Shown here: positions 2,749 to 40,765 of the stretch, piece by piece
How the letters are laid out: each line of letters starts with the position of its first letter
Position numbering within the stretch: the stretch's first letter is position 1
NCBI GenBank assembly: GCA_017437005.1
Contig: JAFSBZ010000009.1
Location: forward strand, 1-41,006
From: Clostridia bacterium
Lineage (GTDB): Bacteria > Bacillota > Clostridia > Oscillospirales > Acutalibacteraceae
Length of the DNA: 41,006 bases
Direction: 5' to 3'
Translations under genes and position numbers: made by a program
The notes under the pieces: generated by a model
Databases searched by the model: none
What the model saw: the letters and a program-made list of their open reading frames with translations, nothing else
What the model was told of the DNA's origin: nothing

Positions 2749-3204
2749 TTATTCTTCGGTTTCTTCTTCACAGTCACAACCGCAATCGCAGCAGCAGTCA
2801 CCGTCAAAATCGAACTCAAGCTCTGTTCCGCAATTGGGGCAGGTCATACCGTCTTCCTCAAGCATATCTGCATCGAGATAAATCACGTCGTTGCATGCGG
2901 GACACTCAATTTCGTAAACCTCATCGTCACAATCGCAGTCACAGTCACAATCATCACAATCGCAGTCGCAATCGTCATCATCGTCGCCGTAAATCACTTC
3001 TTCTACATAAGAAAGATCTTCGTCAACAGCATCAATCTGCTCCATGAGCTCGTCGCAACCGTCTTCAATATCACAGATTTCCTCTGTTATATCGCCCAAA
3101 AGGTCGATAATAGCAGCAAGAATCTTGCCTTCTTTTGTAGCCTCGTCAAGACCGAGACCTTCTGCTAAGCCTTTAATATAAGCAATCTTTTCACAAATAT
3201 CCAT
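2749..3204 (-). CDS. CD1247-type zinc-ribbon protein with Asp/Cys tract
   Basis: This 151-residue, very acidic protein has a helical N-terminal domain (about 1-72) as in the CD1247 N-terminal family of Clostridia. It is followed by an alternating Asp/Cys tract at residues 74-94, a zinc ribbon with CPAC (101-104) and CPNC (122-125), and a Cys-rich acidic tail at 137-145. Two or more metal-binding regions are therefore visible, but the metal and function are unknown. The start has GGAGG ten bases upstream. It follows efp by 40 bases and is probably co-transcribed, a pairing I recall from other Clostridia. The tract is encoded by a GA(Y)TG(Y) hexamer array. Confidence 0.85.
   Translation of the reverse strand: MDICEKIAYIKGLAEGLGLDEATKEGKILAAIIDLLGDITEEICDIEDGCDELMEQIDAVDEDLSYVEEVIYGDDDDDCDCDCDDCDCDCDCDDEVYEIECPACNDVIYLDADMLEEDGMTCPNCGTELEFDFDGDCCCDCGCDCEEETEE
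2923..2985 (-). repeat. Asp/Cys-encoding short tandem repeat
   Basis: The minus strand here reads as imperfect tandem GAC/GAT-TGT/TGC hexamers, flanked by a run of Asp codons. Synonymous third-base changes break up the repeat, which suggests selection to keep the protein sequence while limiting slippage. It encodes residues 74-94 of the CD1247-type protein. Confidence 0.85.
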
Positions 3205-36775: not shown

Positions 36776-37273
36776 TTATGAAAGCACACCGTTTTTATCG
36801 CAAGAGAGGGAAATAGGAACTTCCATAGTTTGTGTGGTTATGAATAAAGTCTTTTTCTTAAACACACCTACAGCGCTTGCGGTATTACCCGATTTACTTG
36901 TGGTTGATGAATCTAATGACCAGCCATTTGAACAATCACTGGCGCTACAGCTAACCGCAGTACAGGTGGCACTAACACCTTCATTTACACTAAATGTTCC
37001 GTTGATTTTAAACTTATACATAACTTCGCCAGAACTATTTTTAGCTGTGTGTGTTTTACTGCCACTTACTGTTCTTGTTGCGCGTGTTTGTTTTTGATTT
37101 AGATATTGTGTTATGGTTGTTGTTATTGAACTGCCGTCTTCGAGATATTCGGTTGTTTCGCTTATTACTATTTCGTTATCTGCTAATCCTTGGTCTGTTG
37201 TTGCAAAAACATTAAAGTTAAATAAACAGCTTAAAATAATTAACGATAAAACTATAAGTAAAAATTTTTTCAT
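36776..37273 (-). CDS. Small secreted protein of unknown function
   Basis: A 165-residue protein with a clear signal peptide (basic start, hydrophobic 4-17, likely cleavage after FNVFA near 24). The mature part is Ser/Thr-rich, predicted beta-strands, with four Cys close together (CTAVSCSASDCSNGW and a final CDKNG) that could form disulfides. I do not recognise the family. It begins two bases after the HAAS-like membrane gene ends, and the PadR gene is first in this leftward set, so the three are co-transcribed. Its control by PadR suggests a role in envelope or signal response. Confidence 0.75.
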   Translation of the reverse strand: MKKFLLIVLSLIILSCLFNFNVFATTDQGLADNEIVISETTEYLEDGSSITTTITQYLNQKQTRATRTVSGSKTHTAKNSSGEVMYKFKINGTFSVNEGVSATCTAVSCSASDCSNGWSLDSSTTSKSGNTASAVGVFKKKTLFITTQTMEVPISLSCDKNGVLS

Positions 37274-37275
37274 TT

Positions 37276-37653
37276 TTATTTATCCCTTTCATATGTAATT
37301 TCGTTATTATAATAAACAGGAATATTTTTTTCGTTTTCAATATAAATATATATCGCTAGTGAAGCAGTAATTACTAAAATTGCTACAAGTATAGAGATTA
37401 CAATCGCAGTAATACGTTTTTTAAATTTGTAAGATTTTACAAAAGAATTGTCAATGCCTACGGCAAATTCTTTTGCAATGTTTTCCGCTGTGCCAAAATG
37501 CTGTTCAATTTGGGTAAAGTCGGTAATGTTGTTTTCGTCTATAAAAGTATTTACCGATACTTTTAAATCATTAAGCATTTTGCGCATGGCTGAGTTTAAA
37601 CAGGGCAAATTTTTCTTTATGTCTTTAAAATAGCTTTGTAATTGTTTTTGCAT
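37276..37653 (-). CDS. HAAS/DUF1700-like membrane protein paired with PadR
   Basis: A 125-residue protein with an N-terminal cytoplasmic helical domain (1-80) whose pattern of small helices, ending with EQHFGTAENIAKEFA, is that of HAAS/DUF1700-type proteins that pair with PadR. A single membrane segment follows (about 82-106), then a short outside tail. The name DUF6120 may also fit; I cannot search. Its start overlaps the PadR stop at 37653, so translation is coupled. In known cases the membrane partner modulates the PadR regulator; that is inferred here. Confidence 0.72.
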   Translation of the reverse strand: MQKQLQSYFKDIKKNLPCLNSAMRKMLNDLKVSVNTFIDENNITDFTQIEQHFGTAENIAKEFAVGIDNSFVKSYKFKKRITAIVISILVAILVITASLAIYIYIENEKNIPVYYNNEITYERDK

Positions 37654-37997
37654 TAGTTTTTGCCCTCCTCGTTTTCGCCTAACACAAGCAAAATACCGTT
37701 GTGCATTGAAAAATATTCTTGTTTAATTTCATTTAGGTAGTCGATACCCGCCTGCTCTATGTGATAGTAAACTCGTGTTCGACGTTTACCAACTAATTCG
37801 CTACGGTCGGTAATACAACCTTTTTCTATCAAACGGTAAAGCACAGGGTAAAGCGAGCCCTCGGTTACAACGTACATACCGTGACTAAGTTCCTTTAATT
37901 GTTGGCATATTTCATAACCGTACATATCCTTTTTGCTTAAAAGCGACAACAGTGCCAGCTCTATTGTGCCGCGTTTAAGACCTTCGGCAATACCCAT
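37653..37997 (-). CDS. PadR-family transcriptional regulator
   Basis: A 114-residue PadR regulator with the winged helix motif IELALLSLLSKKDMYGYEICQQL (in two parts, about 12-34), the recognition part GSLYPVLYRLIEKG near 47-60, and the wing GKRRTRVYYHI. The coiled dimerisation helix (about 85-105) is short. PadR proteins repress exporters or stress genes until a ligand binds. It begins a leftward three-gene unit and is divergent from the caspase-like unit, sharing a 9-bp inverted repeat over both -35 boxes. Confidence 0.93.
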   Translation of the reverse strand: MGIAEGLKRGTIELALLSLLSKKDMYGYEICQQLKELSHGMYVVTEGSLYPVLYRLIEKGCITDRSELVGKRRTRVYYHIEQAGIDYLNEIKQEYFSMHNGILLVLGENEEGKN

Positions 37998-38027
37998 TGG
38001 ACTTACCTCTTTATATTTGTTATTCTT

Positions 38028-38056
38028 AAATTACCATAATTATTTTGGCTTGTCAA
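38028..38056 (-). promoter_or_regulatory. Promoter of the PadR unit
   Basis: On the minus strand TTGACA (38051-38056) and TAATTT (38028-38033) are separated by 17 bases. The ATG at 37997 is 31 bases downstream. Confidence 0.85.
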
Positions 38057-38085
38057 TACTTTATGACACAAAATATTATTGACAA
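38050..38085. promoter_or_regulatory. Inverted repeat over both -35 boxes (candidate PadR operator)
   Basis: TTGTCAATA (38050-38058) and TATTGACAA (38077-38085) are perfect 9-bp arms around an 18-base centre, so the two divergent -35 elements are symmetric. A single regulator bound here could control both units. PadR is the natural candidate, although the arms do not obviously match the ATGT-N8-ACAT pattern known for PadR. Confidence 0.6.
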
Positions 38086-38107
38086 ATTTATATTTTTGTG
38101 CTATTGT
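38079..38107 (+). promoter_or_regulatory. Promoter of the caspase-like peptidase unit
   Basis: TTGACA (38079-38084) and TATTGT (38102-38107) are separated by 17 bases. A hairpin GGTATA/TATACC (38119-38141) lies near the 5' end of the expected transcript. Confidence 0.82.
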
Positions 38108-38162
38108 GTTAATAGAAAGGTATACAAGGGAATATTATACCATAAGAAAGGGAGTGATACCG

Positions 38163-38279
38163 ATGCACGAGTTTAATGAAACACACTATTTATCATTAAA
38201 ACGAGGAGAAAGGAAAAATGATAAGAAAAATTATATCGGTATTGCTATGTGTTGCAATATTGCTGACGTTGTCGTTTAA
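38163..38279 (+). CDS. Short leader ORF overlapping the peptidase gene
   Basis: ATG at 38163 has a strong ribosome binding site GGGAGTG six bases upstream and encodes 38 residues, MHEFNETHYLSLKRGERK..., ending at 38279. It overlaps the start of the next gene (38218) by 62 bases in another frame. The ribosome binding site of the next gene lies inside it, so translation of the leader may control access to it. No similarity is recognised. It may be only a regulatory leader and not a stable peptide. Confidence 0.5.
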   Translation: MHEFNETHYLSLKRGERKNDKKNYIGIAMCCNIADVVV

Positions 38280-39804
38280 TATATCGGCAGAAGAACAATC
38301 ACAAACAAAAAATATTCCAATTACAAGTGAAATTACAGTAAATGTTGAAGAAAACAATGATATTGTTATAACTGAACCTATAATGCCCGTTGATGATGGT
38401 GTATCACTTGTCGCAACAGGCGCTACACCTATAGGACATTTAGATACTGTAAACTCTTCGATTATAGGTGGTTGGGCATATCAGAGTGATGTACCAAACA
38501 CGCCACTTGATGTTCACATTTATATTACAAACAATTCAACAGGAGAGCGAGTGGGTTTTGCAACAATCGCAAATGGTTATCGCGCCGATTTGGCTGCAGC
38601 GGGCTATGGTAACGGTTATCACGCTTTCCAGCATAATATTAGCTGGATGGCATATAAACCGGGAACATATACCGTGCGGGCTTATGCTATAGGTGTGAAC
38701 AGCAATAATCCGGAATTGTATAGTTCACCTAAAACCTTTACGGTAAGGGATATGCAGGGTAACGTGGAAAGAGCAACGGACGAAATTATAGGCTGGGCTT
38801 GGAAACCCGATGCACCTAACGATGCGGTAGAGGCTCACATTCACATTGTTCAGGGTGGTACCGTGCTGGATATAATAACCACTTCCGCTAATCGCTATCG
38901 TGAGGATTTAGATAATTTAGGGTATGGCAATGGTTATCACGGTTTTAAAACTGCAATCGACTGGAGCCAGTATCCCGAAGAAAATTTACGCCTTATAGTA
39001 TATATGTATGACGGCAGTGGTTACTCACCTGTACTTTATGATGGATATTATGAGAATAGAATGCCGATAACATTGTTGGGTATGATTGATGGAAAAGGAA
39101 TAGACCATTCAACATGGATATGGGAAAGCAATACTACAACTTATTGCGAAAATATAGGCTGTTCTCAATTGAATCGATATAATTATGCAGATGCAACGAA
39201 CGTAAATTATTCGTATAGTAGATTTATAAAAGAATCGTCTTTTTGTGCGATAGCTACGCATGGAAACAAATATGGCATACAGTGGAGTATGAGAAATATT
39301 TACAACGGACATGACGATTGTGATGATACTTGCACTACTTGTTTTGGTAGCTATAATACAACGTTTTTAAACACAATGTCTGATGATTATTTTGCTGACA
39401 CAAGGTGCGTGGTTTCGATTGCATGCGAGACCGCGAAAGGCGGAGGAGCAGACTCAACCAATTTTGTGAACGTGTTACAAAGCAAGGGCGTTAAAACTGT
39501 TGTGGGATTTGAGGAAAAAACTTGGTTTTTTTATAACACGGAAACACTGCAAACAATAACTACAAAAGGTTCTTTTAAGTGGATGAACGAATTTGTAAGG
39601 TTATTAAGCGAAGGTTACACTGTAGATTATTCCGTCGCCAAAGCGTACGAAGAAACACTGCTCATTAATCTTGCTGCCGCTGGCTATACAGAGGAACAAT
39701 ATGAAAGTGGAGATATTCCAGAAGATGTTTTAATTAAAGAAGTAATTTGTGGATTAGATAGTTATTGCGTAGTAGGCGACGGTAGTCAGGTTATTAAACA
39801 TTAA
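38218..39804 (+). CDS. Secreted caspase-like (clan CD) protein with two tandem repeats
   Basis: A 528-residue secreted protein with a signal peptide (hydrophobic 5-20, likely cleavage after NISA at 24). Two related domains follow (about 72-176 and 178-281), sharing the words IIGGWAY/IIGWAW, then YRADLAAAGYGNGYHAF / YREDLDNLGYGNGYHGF. The last third (about 285-528) has the features of a caspase/gingipain-like fold: a hydrophobic strand ending in His348-Gly (AIATHGNKYG) and a second ending in Ala-Cys403 (VVSIACETA). These would be the catalytic dyad. Three Cys cluster at 368-375. The ATG has GAGGAGAAAGG upstream. A membrane-anchored partner follows 19 bases later. Confidence 0.75.
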   Translation: MIRKIISVLLCVAILLTLSFNISAEEQSQTKNIPITSEITVNVEENNDIVITEPIMPVDDGVSLVATGATPIGHLDTVNSSIIGGWAYQSDVPNTPLDVHIYITNNSTGERVGFATIANGYRADLAAAGYGNGYHAFQHNISWMAYKPGTYTVRAYAIGVNSNNPELYSSPKTFTVRDMQGNVERATDEIIGWAWKPDAPNDAVEAHIHIVQGGTVLDIITTSANRYREDLDNLGYGNGYHGFKTAIDWSQYPEENLRLIVYMYDGSGYSPVLYDGYYENRMPITLLGMIDGKGIDHSTWIWESNTTTYCENIGCSQLNRYNYADATNVNYSYSRFIKESSFCAIATHGNKYGIQWSMRNIYNGHDDCDDTCTTCFGSYNTTFLNTMSDDYFADTRCVVSIACETAKGGGADSTNFVNVLQSKGVKTVVGFEEKTWFFYNTETLQTITTKGSFKWMNEFVRLLSEGYTVDYSVAKAYEETLLINLAAAGYTEEQYESGDIPEDVLIKEVICGLDSYCVVGDGSQVIKH

Positions 39805-39823
39805 TTAGAAGGAGAGGATATAA

Positions 39824-40765
39824 ATGAACAAAAGGAAAATTTTATTATTTGGAGTAATAGTATCGTTGTGCGTTGCAGTTGGTTTTACGACCAACGTAAA
39901 AAGGGAAACGCCAATCCAAAAAGCGTATGAAAATACAAACGAAAGTTCAATCCTTGTTGAAGATGGTGAAATTGAAATTTTAAATCAAAATAAAGATAAT
40001 GTAACGCAGAACGAAACTGCTCAAATTAATTCACAAGAAAACGCTGAAAAAACAACTGATATTGTACAACAAAGCGAAACATCATTTTCAACAGAAGTTT
40101 CAACTGGAGATTTTATATCCGCGGAAGACAAAGCGGTAAAATCCGAAATATCGAAATATGTTGATACAAAGGTGGATTTTAGATTAAATAGACAGGAAAA
40201 AATTAACCAAAAAACGTTTAATCTCACTTTTTTTGAAATGGAAAACATTATAGAAAATAATGAAAAGGTAGTGTATAAAAACGAATCGGAAGATATTTTT
40301 AAATATGACGCAAAAAGCGGAAAACTGCGCGAAGCAATAATCAATTCGGTTGTTACACAAAAAACAAATGAAAGCATCGATGAAAATACAGCGCAAAAAA
40401 TCGCCATAGAATACGCGAAAACAAAATATGAAACAGATGCATACAAGCTATATTCGTGCAAAGAAACAACCAAAGGGCATAATTATATTTATACAAGATA
40501 TATTGGTGGATATCCCAGCAGTGACAAATTTTCTATTAAAGTAGGATATGATGGTAATATAGTTTACGTTAGCGATTTCACGGATACGTTTGACAGCAAA
40601 GAATTGAATTACAGCAAAGAATTTATAGATTCAAAAATAAAGGAATATTCTGATGAAACAAAGGTTGATTGGAATAGTATAACAATTTGTATTCACGAAG
40701 GAAAAGTAGCTGTAAAATATACAGAACCTGAACAGTGTGCAATAGCAATACTTCCTCTTGAATAG
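39824..40765 (+). CDS. Membrane-anchored PepSY/YcdB-like partner protein
   Basis: A 313-residue protein with a single N-terminal hydrophobic segment (6-23) serving as an anchor or signal. A long Asn/Gln/Glu/Thr-rich linker (about 30-100) leads to a domain at roughly 105-310. The part around 190-260 (ENTAQKIAIEYAKTKY, then YIYTRYIGGYPSSDKFSIKV, GYDGNIVYVSD) resembles YcdB/PepSY-type modules, some of which sit in peptidase propeptides and may inhibit. The resemblance is by eye only. GAAGGAGAGG precedes the ATG. Coupling to the upstream caspase-like protein suggests an inhibitor, chaperone or surface partner. Confidence 0.6.
   Translation: MNKRKILLFGVIVSLCVAVGFTTNVKRETPIQKAYENTNESSILVEDGEIEILNQNKDNVTQNETAQINSQENAEKTTDIVQQSETSFSTEVSTGDFISAEDKAVKSEISKYVDTKVDFRLNRQEKINQKTFNLTFFEMENIIENNEKVVYKNESEDIFKYDAKSGKLREAIINSVVTQKTNESIDENTAQKIAIEYAKTKYETDAYKLYSCKETTKGHNYIYTRYIGGYPSSDKFSIKVGYDGNIVYVSDFTDTFDSKELNYSKEFIDSKIKEYSDETKVDWNSITICIHEGKVAVKYTEPEQCAIAILPLE

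What the first reader, a model, noticed from the sequence alone, without database searches (positions are those of the whole stretch)
38218..40765. Secreted caspase-like protein with a membrane-anchored PepSY/YcdB-like partner
Seen: an exported protein with two tandem repeats, then a C-terminal domain with strand-His-Gly (His348) and strand-Ala-Cys (Cys403), the two motifs that define caspase/gingipain/CHAT-type (clan CD) peptidases. A co-transcribed anchored protein with a possible inhibitor-like module follows. Known: clan CD enzymes use a His/Cys dyad in this order. Inferred: a secreted protease and its inhibitor or surface partner, under PadR-linked control. I do not know of a described system with this architecture.
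Basis: partly seen in the sequence, partly recalled or inferred. Interest (0 to 1): 0.72.

Follow-up and report, generated by a model that had tools for sequence, protein, structure and literature searches.

The report
Secreted caspase-like protease with surface partner
A gut bacterium carries an exported caspase-like enzyme paired with a membrane-anchored partner protein, probably its restraint, and the pair looks like one exchangeable payload of a regulated secreted-enzyme system, possibly used against rival microbes.

The parts
38218..39804 (+). Exported caspase-fold protein, 528 aa (effector)
   Evidence: ORF; AlphaFold2 model pLDDT 87.8; VIA-align rows RgpB, SAVED-CHAT, Kgp, Csx29, caspase-11
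38422..38745 (+). Ig-like repeat 1 (residues 69-176)
   Evidence: Profile cross-match of repeats; FN3/Ig-like folds matched over residues 68-283
38746..39060 (+). Ig-like repeat 2 (residues 177-281)
   Evidence: As repeat 1
39061..39801 (+). CHAT/gingipain-like catalytic domain (residues 282-528)
   Evidence: Alignment A3; weak Pfam CHAT hits in 9 of 18 members, none in the window's own; fold
39259..39261 (+). Predicted catalytic His348 codon
   Evidence: His in 63 of 63 rows of A1; 30 of 31 genomic frames aligned there
39424..39426 (+). Predicted catalytic Cys403 codon
   Evidence: Cys in 63 of 63 rows of A1; 33 of 34 genomic frames
39824..40765 (+). Membrane-anchored DUF4901 (PepSY-like) partner, 313 aa
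40112..40762 (+). Folded part of partner (residues 97-313)
   Evidence: pLDDT above 80 in every 10-residue block from residue 101
37653..37997 (-). PadR-family regulator, divergent
   Evidence: PF03551 E 3.7e-20; 84-97% identical among window, G012, G025:C43 and G023
37276..37653 (-). DUF6120 protein with one predicted membrane segment
   Evidence: PF19615 28.8 bits against cut-off 27; membrane segment read from the sequence
36776..37273 (-). Small secreted protein ('sec'), unknown family
   Evidence: No Pfam hit; PadR and DUF6120 both nearby in 23 of 26 sec loci examined
37998..38217 (.). Divergent intergenic region, candidate dyad arms at 38049-38058 and 38077-38086
   Evidence: Four loci 68-77% identical, dyad at the same place with 1 mismatch in each; such a repeat arises in 19-24 of 200 shuffles, so only its conservation speaks for it

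Best explanation
The effector is exported by its signal peptide and presents a clan CD (CHAT/gingipain-type) cysteine peptidase on Ig-like surface-binding repeats. Its His348/Cys403 dyad cleaves surface or extracellular proteins. The downstream gene makes the cognate partner: a PepSY-like domain tethered outside the producer's membrane by an N-terminal helix and a flexible linker. The partner binds the peptidase to hold it inactive or stable and so protects the producer, much as anchored YpeB is thought to hold SleB. PadR, acting on a shared divergent promoter region with DUF6120 and the small secreted protein, controls the pair. Because other exported hydrolases, several with other small anchored neighbours, occupy the same place in relatives, I read the locus as a polymorphic secreted-effector/immunity-like system, most likely for competition. 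Shown by computation: fold, dyad conservation, bicistron conservation, payload exchange. Predicted from sequence: export and anchoring. Inferred: proteolysis, binding, inhibition, competitive role, PadR binding.
For: Fold and dyad. Partner fold. Bicistron in 29 of 33 loci. Effector and partner distance matrices correlate (27 of the 29 pairs used, r 0.56; maximum of 2000 permutations 0.23); genome G025 carries two systems, one with CHAT and partner nearest the window's, the other with both nearest those of G079. The one homologue that lost both His and Cys (L069, n=1) also lacks the partner. Payload exchange beside a conserved PadR (96-97% identity beside a C39 or a non-CHAT payload). Other payloads in sec loci. 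Shared N-part 67-74% but C-part 22-27% identical. YpeB-SleB precedent: passages of PMC6660665 and PMC13393411.
Against: No activity, binding or toxicity data. In YpeB the N-terminal domain was the most effective inhibitor of SleB in vitro (PMC6660665 passage), so PepSY resemblance does not by itself mean inhibition. Dockerin, CBM96 and lectin modules on some payloads fit digestion as well as competition. No exported payload adjoins the cassette in 9 of 20 sec loci (one at a contig end), and my signal-like criterion is also met by 35 of 127 other ORFs there. CHAT pairs also occur without the cassette's PadR (G024) or away from it (G025:C70). Two loci with both dyad residues show no recognisable partner (L047, L075). 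Two of the three exchanged C-parts are both CHAT-type, so divergence rather than swapping could explain that pair.
Confidence: 0.5

Rival explanations
1. Digestive or host-matrix protease: the enzyme, like the other exported hydrolases at PadR-cassette loci, degrades dietary or host proteins and cell walls in the gut. The anchored partner is a local safety inhibitor or foldase, with no role in competition.
For: Payloads carry lectin, CBM96, dockerin and Ig-like modules. Best VIA-align row is gingipain RgpB; gingipains are described as cleaving host proteins (PMC3482391 section 11).
Against: Payload change behind a conserved regulator and N-part and RHS proteins in the same place are more typical of conflict systems. 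A dedicated partner in most loci is unusual for a scavenging enzyme (recalled).
Confidence: 0.28
2. Processing or signalling pair: the anchored partner is the substrate. The peptidase cuts its linker or PepSY domain to pass a signal or release a product, as Csx29 cuts Csx30 (recalled).
For: Partner has a long low-confidence linker between anchor and fold. Csx29 is a structural neighbour, in an entry that also holds Csx30 (8eey); RNA-activated protein cleavage by a CRISPR-associated endopeptidase is the subject of PMC10028731 (search listing and start of abstract only).
Against: The folded part of the partner, not the linker, is what is conserved. Only about five residues precede its N-terminal helix, so there is no cytoplasmic signalling domain.
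Confidence: 0.14
3. Catalytically idle scaffold: the caspase fold is a binding module, and the pair is a surface-adhesion complex.
For: One family member (L069) has lost both dyad residues. Repeats and lectin modules suggest adhesion.
Against: Dyad kept in the other members where it could be aligned, down to about 23-30% identity, and the one dyad-less member lacks the partner.
Confidence: 0.06

Closest known systems
Gingipain R/K (peptidase family C25), Porphyromonas gingivalis
   Different: C25 is not among the 25 of 40 Pfam families shown for 63 members; here the Ig-like repeats precede the catalytic domain; a downstream anchored partner in most loci
CHAT-domain peptidases (Csx29/TPR-CHAT, SAVED-CHAT)
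   Different: Signal-like N-terminus and surface-type modules; no TPR or SAVED domain found. CHAT bit scores, where shown, are below the cut-off (5 of 10 proteins hit, best 20.2 against 24)
SleB-YpeB of Bacillus spores
   Same: Exported hydrolase plus membrane-anchored PepSY-fold partner from one operon; partner thought to hold the enzyme (passages of PMC6660665 and PMC13393411)
   Different: SleB is a lytic enzyme of cortex peptidoglycan, not a peptidase; YpeB has an N-terminal region (residues 21-202) that the partner lacks
Polymorphic toxin systems with a caspase-like C-terminal domain (PMC3482391 section 11)
   Same: C-terminal caspase-like domain on variable exported N-terminal modules, adjacent candidate immunity gene, domain exchange; RHS proteins in the same locus type
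   Different: That section names Bacteroidetes, Gammaproteobacteria and Actinobacteria; 'CHAT' and 'PepSY' do not occur in the held text (first 300,000 of 357,715 characters). I saw passages and section 11 only, so a PadR link elsewhere in it is not excluded

Membership tests
Clan CD caspase-fold peptidases | Caspase-type fold | tested here: met
Clan CD caspase-fold peptidases | His then Cys dyad at the ends of strands | tested here: met
   Conserved in 63 of 63, strands end at 346 and 401; distance not measured
Clan CD caspase-fold peptidases | Peptidase activity | not testable with these tools
   Needs an assay
Pfam CHAT (PF12770) | Score above the curated cut-off | tested here: not met
   Window protein and its domain: no CHAT hit at E up to 1. 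Relatives: best 20.2 bits against 24 among ten; best E 2.9e-5, bits not shown there
Gingipain C25 | Family-level sequence match | tested here: inconclusive
   Not among the 25 of 40 families shown for 63 members; top fold match is RgpB
DUF4901 (PF16244) | Score above the curated cut-off | tested here: met
   28.1 bits against 27; 24 of 30 members of A2 match at E up to 0.1
YpeB | C-terminal PepSY fold | tested here: met
YpeB | N-terminal domain of about 180 residues | tested here: not met
   Residues 19-96 are unstructured in the model
Polymorphic toxin system | Shared exported N-terminus with exchangeable C-terminal domains | tested here: met
   G012, G025:C43, G023: N-part 67-74%, C-part 22-27% identical; two of the C-parts are both CHAT-type
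Polymorphic toxin system | Candidate immunity gene directly downstream | tested here: met
   29 of 33 loci; position only, protection not tested
Polymorphic toxin system | Toxicity to kin and protection by the partner | not testable with these tools
   Needs expression and co-culture tests

The most novel reading that the evidence does not exclude
A PadR-DUF6120-small-secreted-protein cassette marks a previously undescribed polymorphic system of gut Clostridia. It deploys exchangeable exported hydrolases (caspase-like, papain-like, metallo-, serine, amidase, M23, RHS-borne) against rival bacteria, with surface-anchored neighbours as immunity proteins. The extracellular caspase with a PepSY-type inhibitor is one payload pair, which also travels on its own across the order.
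Probability: 0.38. Interest if true: 0.82.

Novelty: new variant of a known kind. Interest (0 to 1): 0.64.

Why it matters
If right, it links the caspase fold to an extracellular weapon or tool of gut Clostridia. It gives DUF4901 a testable role as cognate restraint of secreted peptidases, and it offers a regulatory marker (PadR-DUF6120-sec) for finding new secreted enzymes and candidate immunity proteins, some with no known domain. It would also extend the PepSY-partner principle (YpeB-SleB) to cysteine peptidases.

Tried and rejected
Chance motif match: rejected by dyad conservation and fold. Ordinary annotated protease: no Pfam (above cut-off), NCBIfam, PADLOC or PDB sequence hit identifies gene 1. 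Defence CHAT: PADLOC gave three isolated weak hits, one member each of 18. Plasmid or phage cargo: no tblastn match of the catalytic domain at E up to 1e-3 in 72,556 plasmid or 50,697 phage records. PDB searches with profiles gave only weak, chance-like hits (best E 0.71, 0.049). Foldseek on the whole model showed 50 of 1983 rows, mainly fibronectin/Ig-type and glycosidase hits and no caspase-type one; the caspase matches appear in the VIA-align second look. Cys397 as a second catalytic residue: invariant in A1 (63 of 63) but not Cys in 22 of 34 genomic frames, so rejected.

Controls and limits. A1 used 62 of the 100 hits; the 38 left out had no C-terminal match. The adjacency count took same-strand hits at E up to 0.01 within -150 to 500 nt (weakest L070, 0.0036). 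The diversified profile (part2) was partly built from family-level partners chosen by adjacency, so only the 19 order-level loci are an independent test (16 of 19). The profile made without adjacency (A2) hits the downstream gene in 13 of 33 overall and 3 of the 19. Fifteen further partner-profile hits lie elsewhere among 4602 frames, several beside other partner copies. The mirror-tree test left out 2 of 29 pairs and does not remove shared phylogeny. Hydrophobic N-termini were found in 27 of 27 partners, lipobox-like in 13, but the same loose hydrophobicity test passes 90 of 158 ORFs of 200-400 aa in these loci (partners included), so it proves little. Signal-like N-termini: 11 of 11 payload genes counted, by selection, against 35 of 127 control ORFs. 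The dyad occurs in 10-12% of shuffles. Sec loci: 20 of the 37 places were fetched, chosen by E-value with one passed over; payload status was judged by eye.

Papers. Searches (DUF4901) found 0 papers. Searches were seen as capped listings (20 of 5,790, 15 of 5,095, 15 of 44, 15 of 92). Searches (7; 2; 13; 4) were listed whole. I opened only PMC3482391 (passages and section 11), PMC13393411 and PMC6660665 (passages).

Full report
What is there. Gene 1 (38218-39804, +) encodes 528 aa: a signal-like N-terminus, a low-confidence stretch to about residue 66, two Ig-like repeats (69-176, 177-281) and a C-terminal domain (282-528). Gene 2 (39824-40765) follows after 19 nt with an N-terminal hydrophobic helix, an unstructured stretch (19-96) and a folded part with a DUF4901 match. 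Divergently upstream lie PadR, a DUF6120 protein and a small secreted protein I call sec.

The pair is conserved. In the genus, CHAT matches occur in 4 of 70 genomes and the partner in 5 of 70; all four CHAT genomes have a partner just downstream. The fifth partner genome, G023, has a truncated copy. In the family CHAT occurs in 12 of 398 and in the order set in 17 of 394 genomes. Over the fetched neighbourhoods there are 34 CHAT frames; one ends at a contig edge. Of the other 33, 29 have a partner-profile hit directly downstream on the same strand. For the 19 order-level frames, in other families and searched with a profile built only from family f1 and database relatives, it is 16 of 19. With the stricter A2 profile it is 13 of 33, and 3 of the 19. 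The exceptions are L069 (His to Tyr, Cys to Asn; followed by genes that look like a two-component system), L076 (match crosses two stops), L047 and L075. The two distance matrices correlate over 27 pairs (r 0.56; maximum of 2000 permutations 0.23). In genome G025 one system has CHAT and partner nearest the window's, while the other matches genome G079 in both CHAT (55%) and partner (51%). In the protein database at least 8 of 29 partner homologues have the same longest-contig length as a CHAT homologue, a further sign of linkage.

A payload of a PadR cassette. The five-gene arrangement recurs in G012, and with PadR at a contig edge in G025:C43. The padR-effector gap is 68-77% identical in four loci and carries an inverted repeat around TTGTCAAT/ATTGACAA with one mismatch per locus; shuffles give such a repeat in 19-24 of 200, so its weight rests on conservation. 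PadR is 84-97% identical, DUF6120 62-74% and sec 64-71%, but whole effectors only 26-56% and partners 20-33%. G012, G025:C43 and G023 share effector N-parts at 67-74% while their C-parts are 22-27% identical. The first two C-parts are both CHAT-type; that of G023 is not CHAT and has no Pfam match, and its truncated partner remains about 3 kb downstream, beyond an ORF that looks like a transposase (recalled look). PadR at E up to 1e-30 occurs in 8 of 70 genus genomes. Beside it, G032 (PadR 96% identical) has a papain-like C39 peptidase (41.9 bits against 24) with a neighbour that looks membrane-anchored, and G056 (PadR 64%) has a 2268-aa RHS protein with a cell-wall hydrolase domain near its end (29.9 against 27). 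G060 and G054, also PadR hits, show no such payload that I recognised in the fetched stretch.

Survey from sec. Sec matches occur in 32 of 398 family genomes, at 37 places. I fetched 20 of these places. In 17 of 20 both DUF6120 and PadR lie beside sec; the order of the three genes varies (for example L138; also L047 from the earlier set). In 11 of 20 a signal-bearing or lipoprotein-type gene lies divergently next to the cassette (judged by eye); 35 of 127 other ORFs in these loci pass the same signal test. Pfam in ten proteins from these loci: Amidase_6 twice (in L134 it is the second gene), matrixin M10, trypsin-like just below cut-off (20.5 against 20.6), subtilase with dockerin, M23 with SH3, RHS repeats, a CBM96/BACON protein; two had no match at E up to 0.01. 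At least nine payload loci have a small anchored or exported neighbour by the look of its N-terminus (L040, L096, L097, L134, L135, L139, L145, L152, L153). Nine of 20 show no such payload, one of them at a contig end.

Mechanism. The YpeB-SleB pair gives the model: an exported hydrolase with a tethered PepSY partner from one operon, thought to hold the enzyme (passages of PMC13393411). The same literature warns that the YpeB N-terminal domain inhibits best in vitro and that a region of the C-terminal domain is needed for stabilisation (PMC6660665 passages). Caspase-like C-terminal toxin domains in polymorphic toxins were proposed in PMC3482391 (section 11 read). I therefore commit to a secreted clan CD peptidase with a cognate surface-anchored holder or inhibitor, organised like a toxin-immunity payload (confidence 0.5). 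The digestive-enzyme reading stays the main rival (0.28). The checking pass added controls but did not change these odds.

Novelty. The enzyme fold and the toxin-immunity idea are known kinds. The exported CHAT-DUF4901 bicistron and the PadR-DUF6120-sec cassette with exchangeable hydrolases were not seen described in ten searches of the held open-licence papers, four of which I saw only as capped listings. Subscription papers are mostly not in that library.

Host. The window's assembly has 1.97 Mb and is 85% complete. A same-genus contig carrying the pair has the same length and match position as JAFTTE010000079.1, titled a Clostridia bacterium MAG from roe deer colon.

Noticed in passing
window 38163-38279 (+): A short ORF (38 codons) with a ribosome-binding-site-like stretch starts ahead of the effector and overlaps its start in another frame. 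Its start and leader sequence are kept in four loci; the overlap itself may explain the peptide similarity.
   Followed up: partly
window 36776-37273 (-): The small secreted protein beside PadR/DUF6120 is found in more family genomes than CHAT (32 against 12 of 398) and has no Pfam family; its role in the cassette is unknown.
   Followed up: partly
L069:5401-6120 (-): A signal-bearing CHAT-fold protein with Tyr and Asn in place of the dyad, no partner, followed by genes that look like a two-component system: a possible pseudo-protease sensor.
   Followed up: partly
L035:2-1729 (+): In G025 the pair sits directly upstream of a gene run (ymdB-like to recG-like, names recalled, matched by eye) that in the window lies about 30 kb from the pair, so the pair occupies different chromosomal sites within one genus.
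   Followed up: partly
window 39319-39342 (+), residues 368-375: A Cys-x3-Cys-x2-Cys loop between the catalytic His and Cys; only 17 of 63 rows have a residue at position 368, all Cys. Possibly a metal-binding or disulfide loop of close relatives.
   Followed up: no
window 38422-39060 (+): Homologues that match only outside the catalytic domain carry M23, NlpC/P60 (name recalled), trypsin-like, SH3 or RicinB domains, so the repeats look like a shared surface module of this lineage.
   Followed up: no
window 2749-3204 (-): A 151-aa ORF rich in Asp and Cys runs, with a zinc-ribbon-like pair of CPxC motifs.
   Followed up: no
L153:10581-11591 (-) and L136:2970-3806 (+): Signal-bearing payloads without a Pfam match at E up to 0.01 next to the PadR cassette; candidates for undescribed effector domains.
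   Followed up: no
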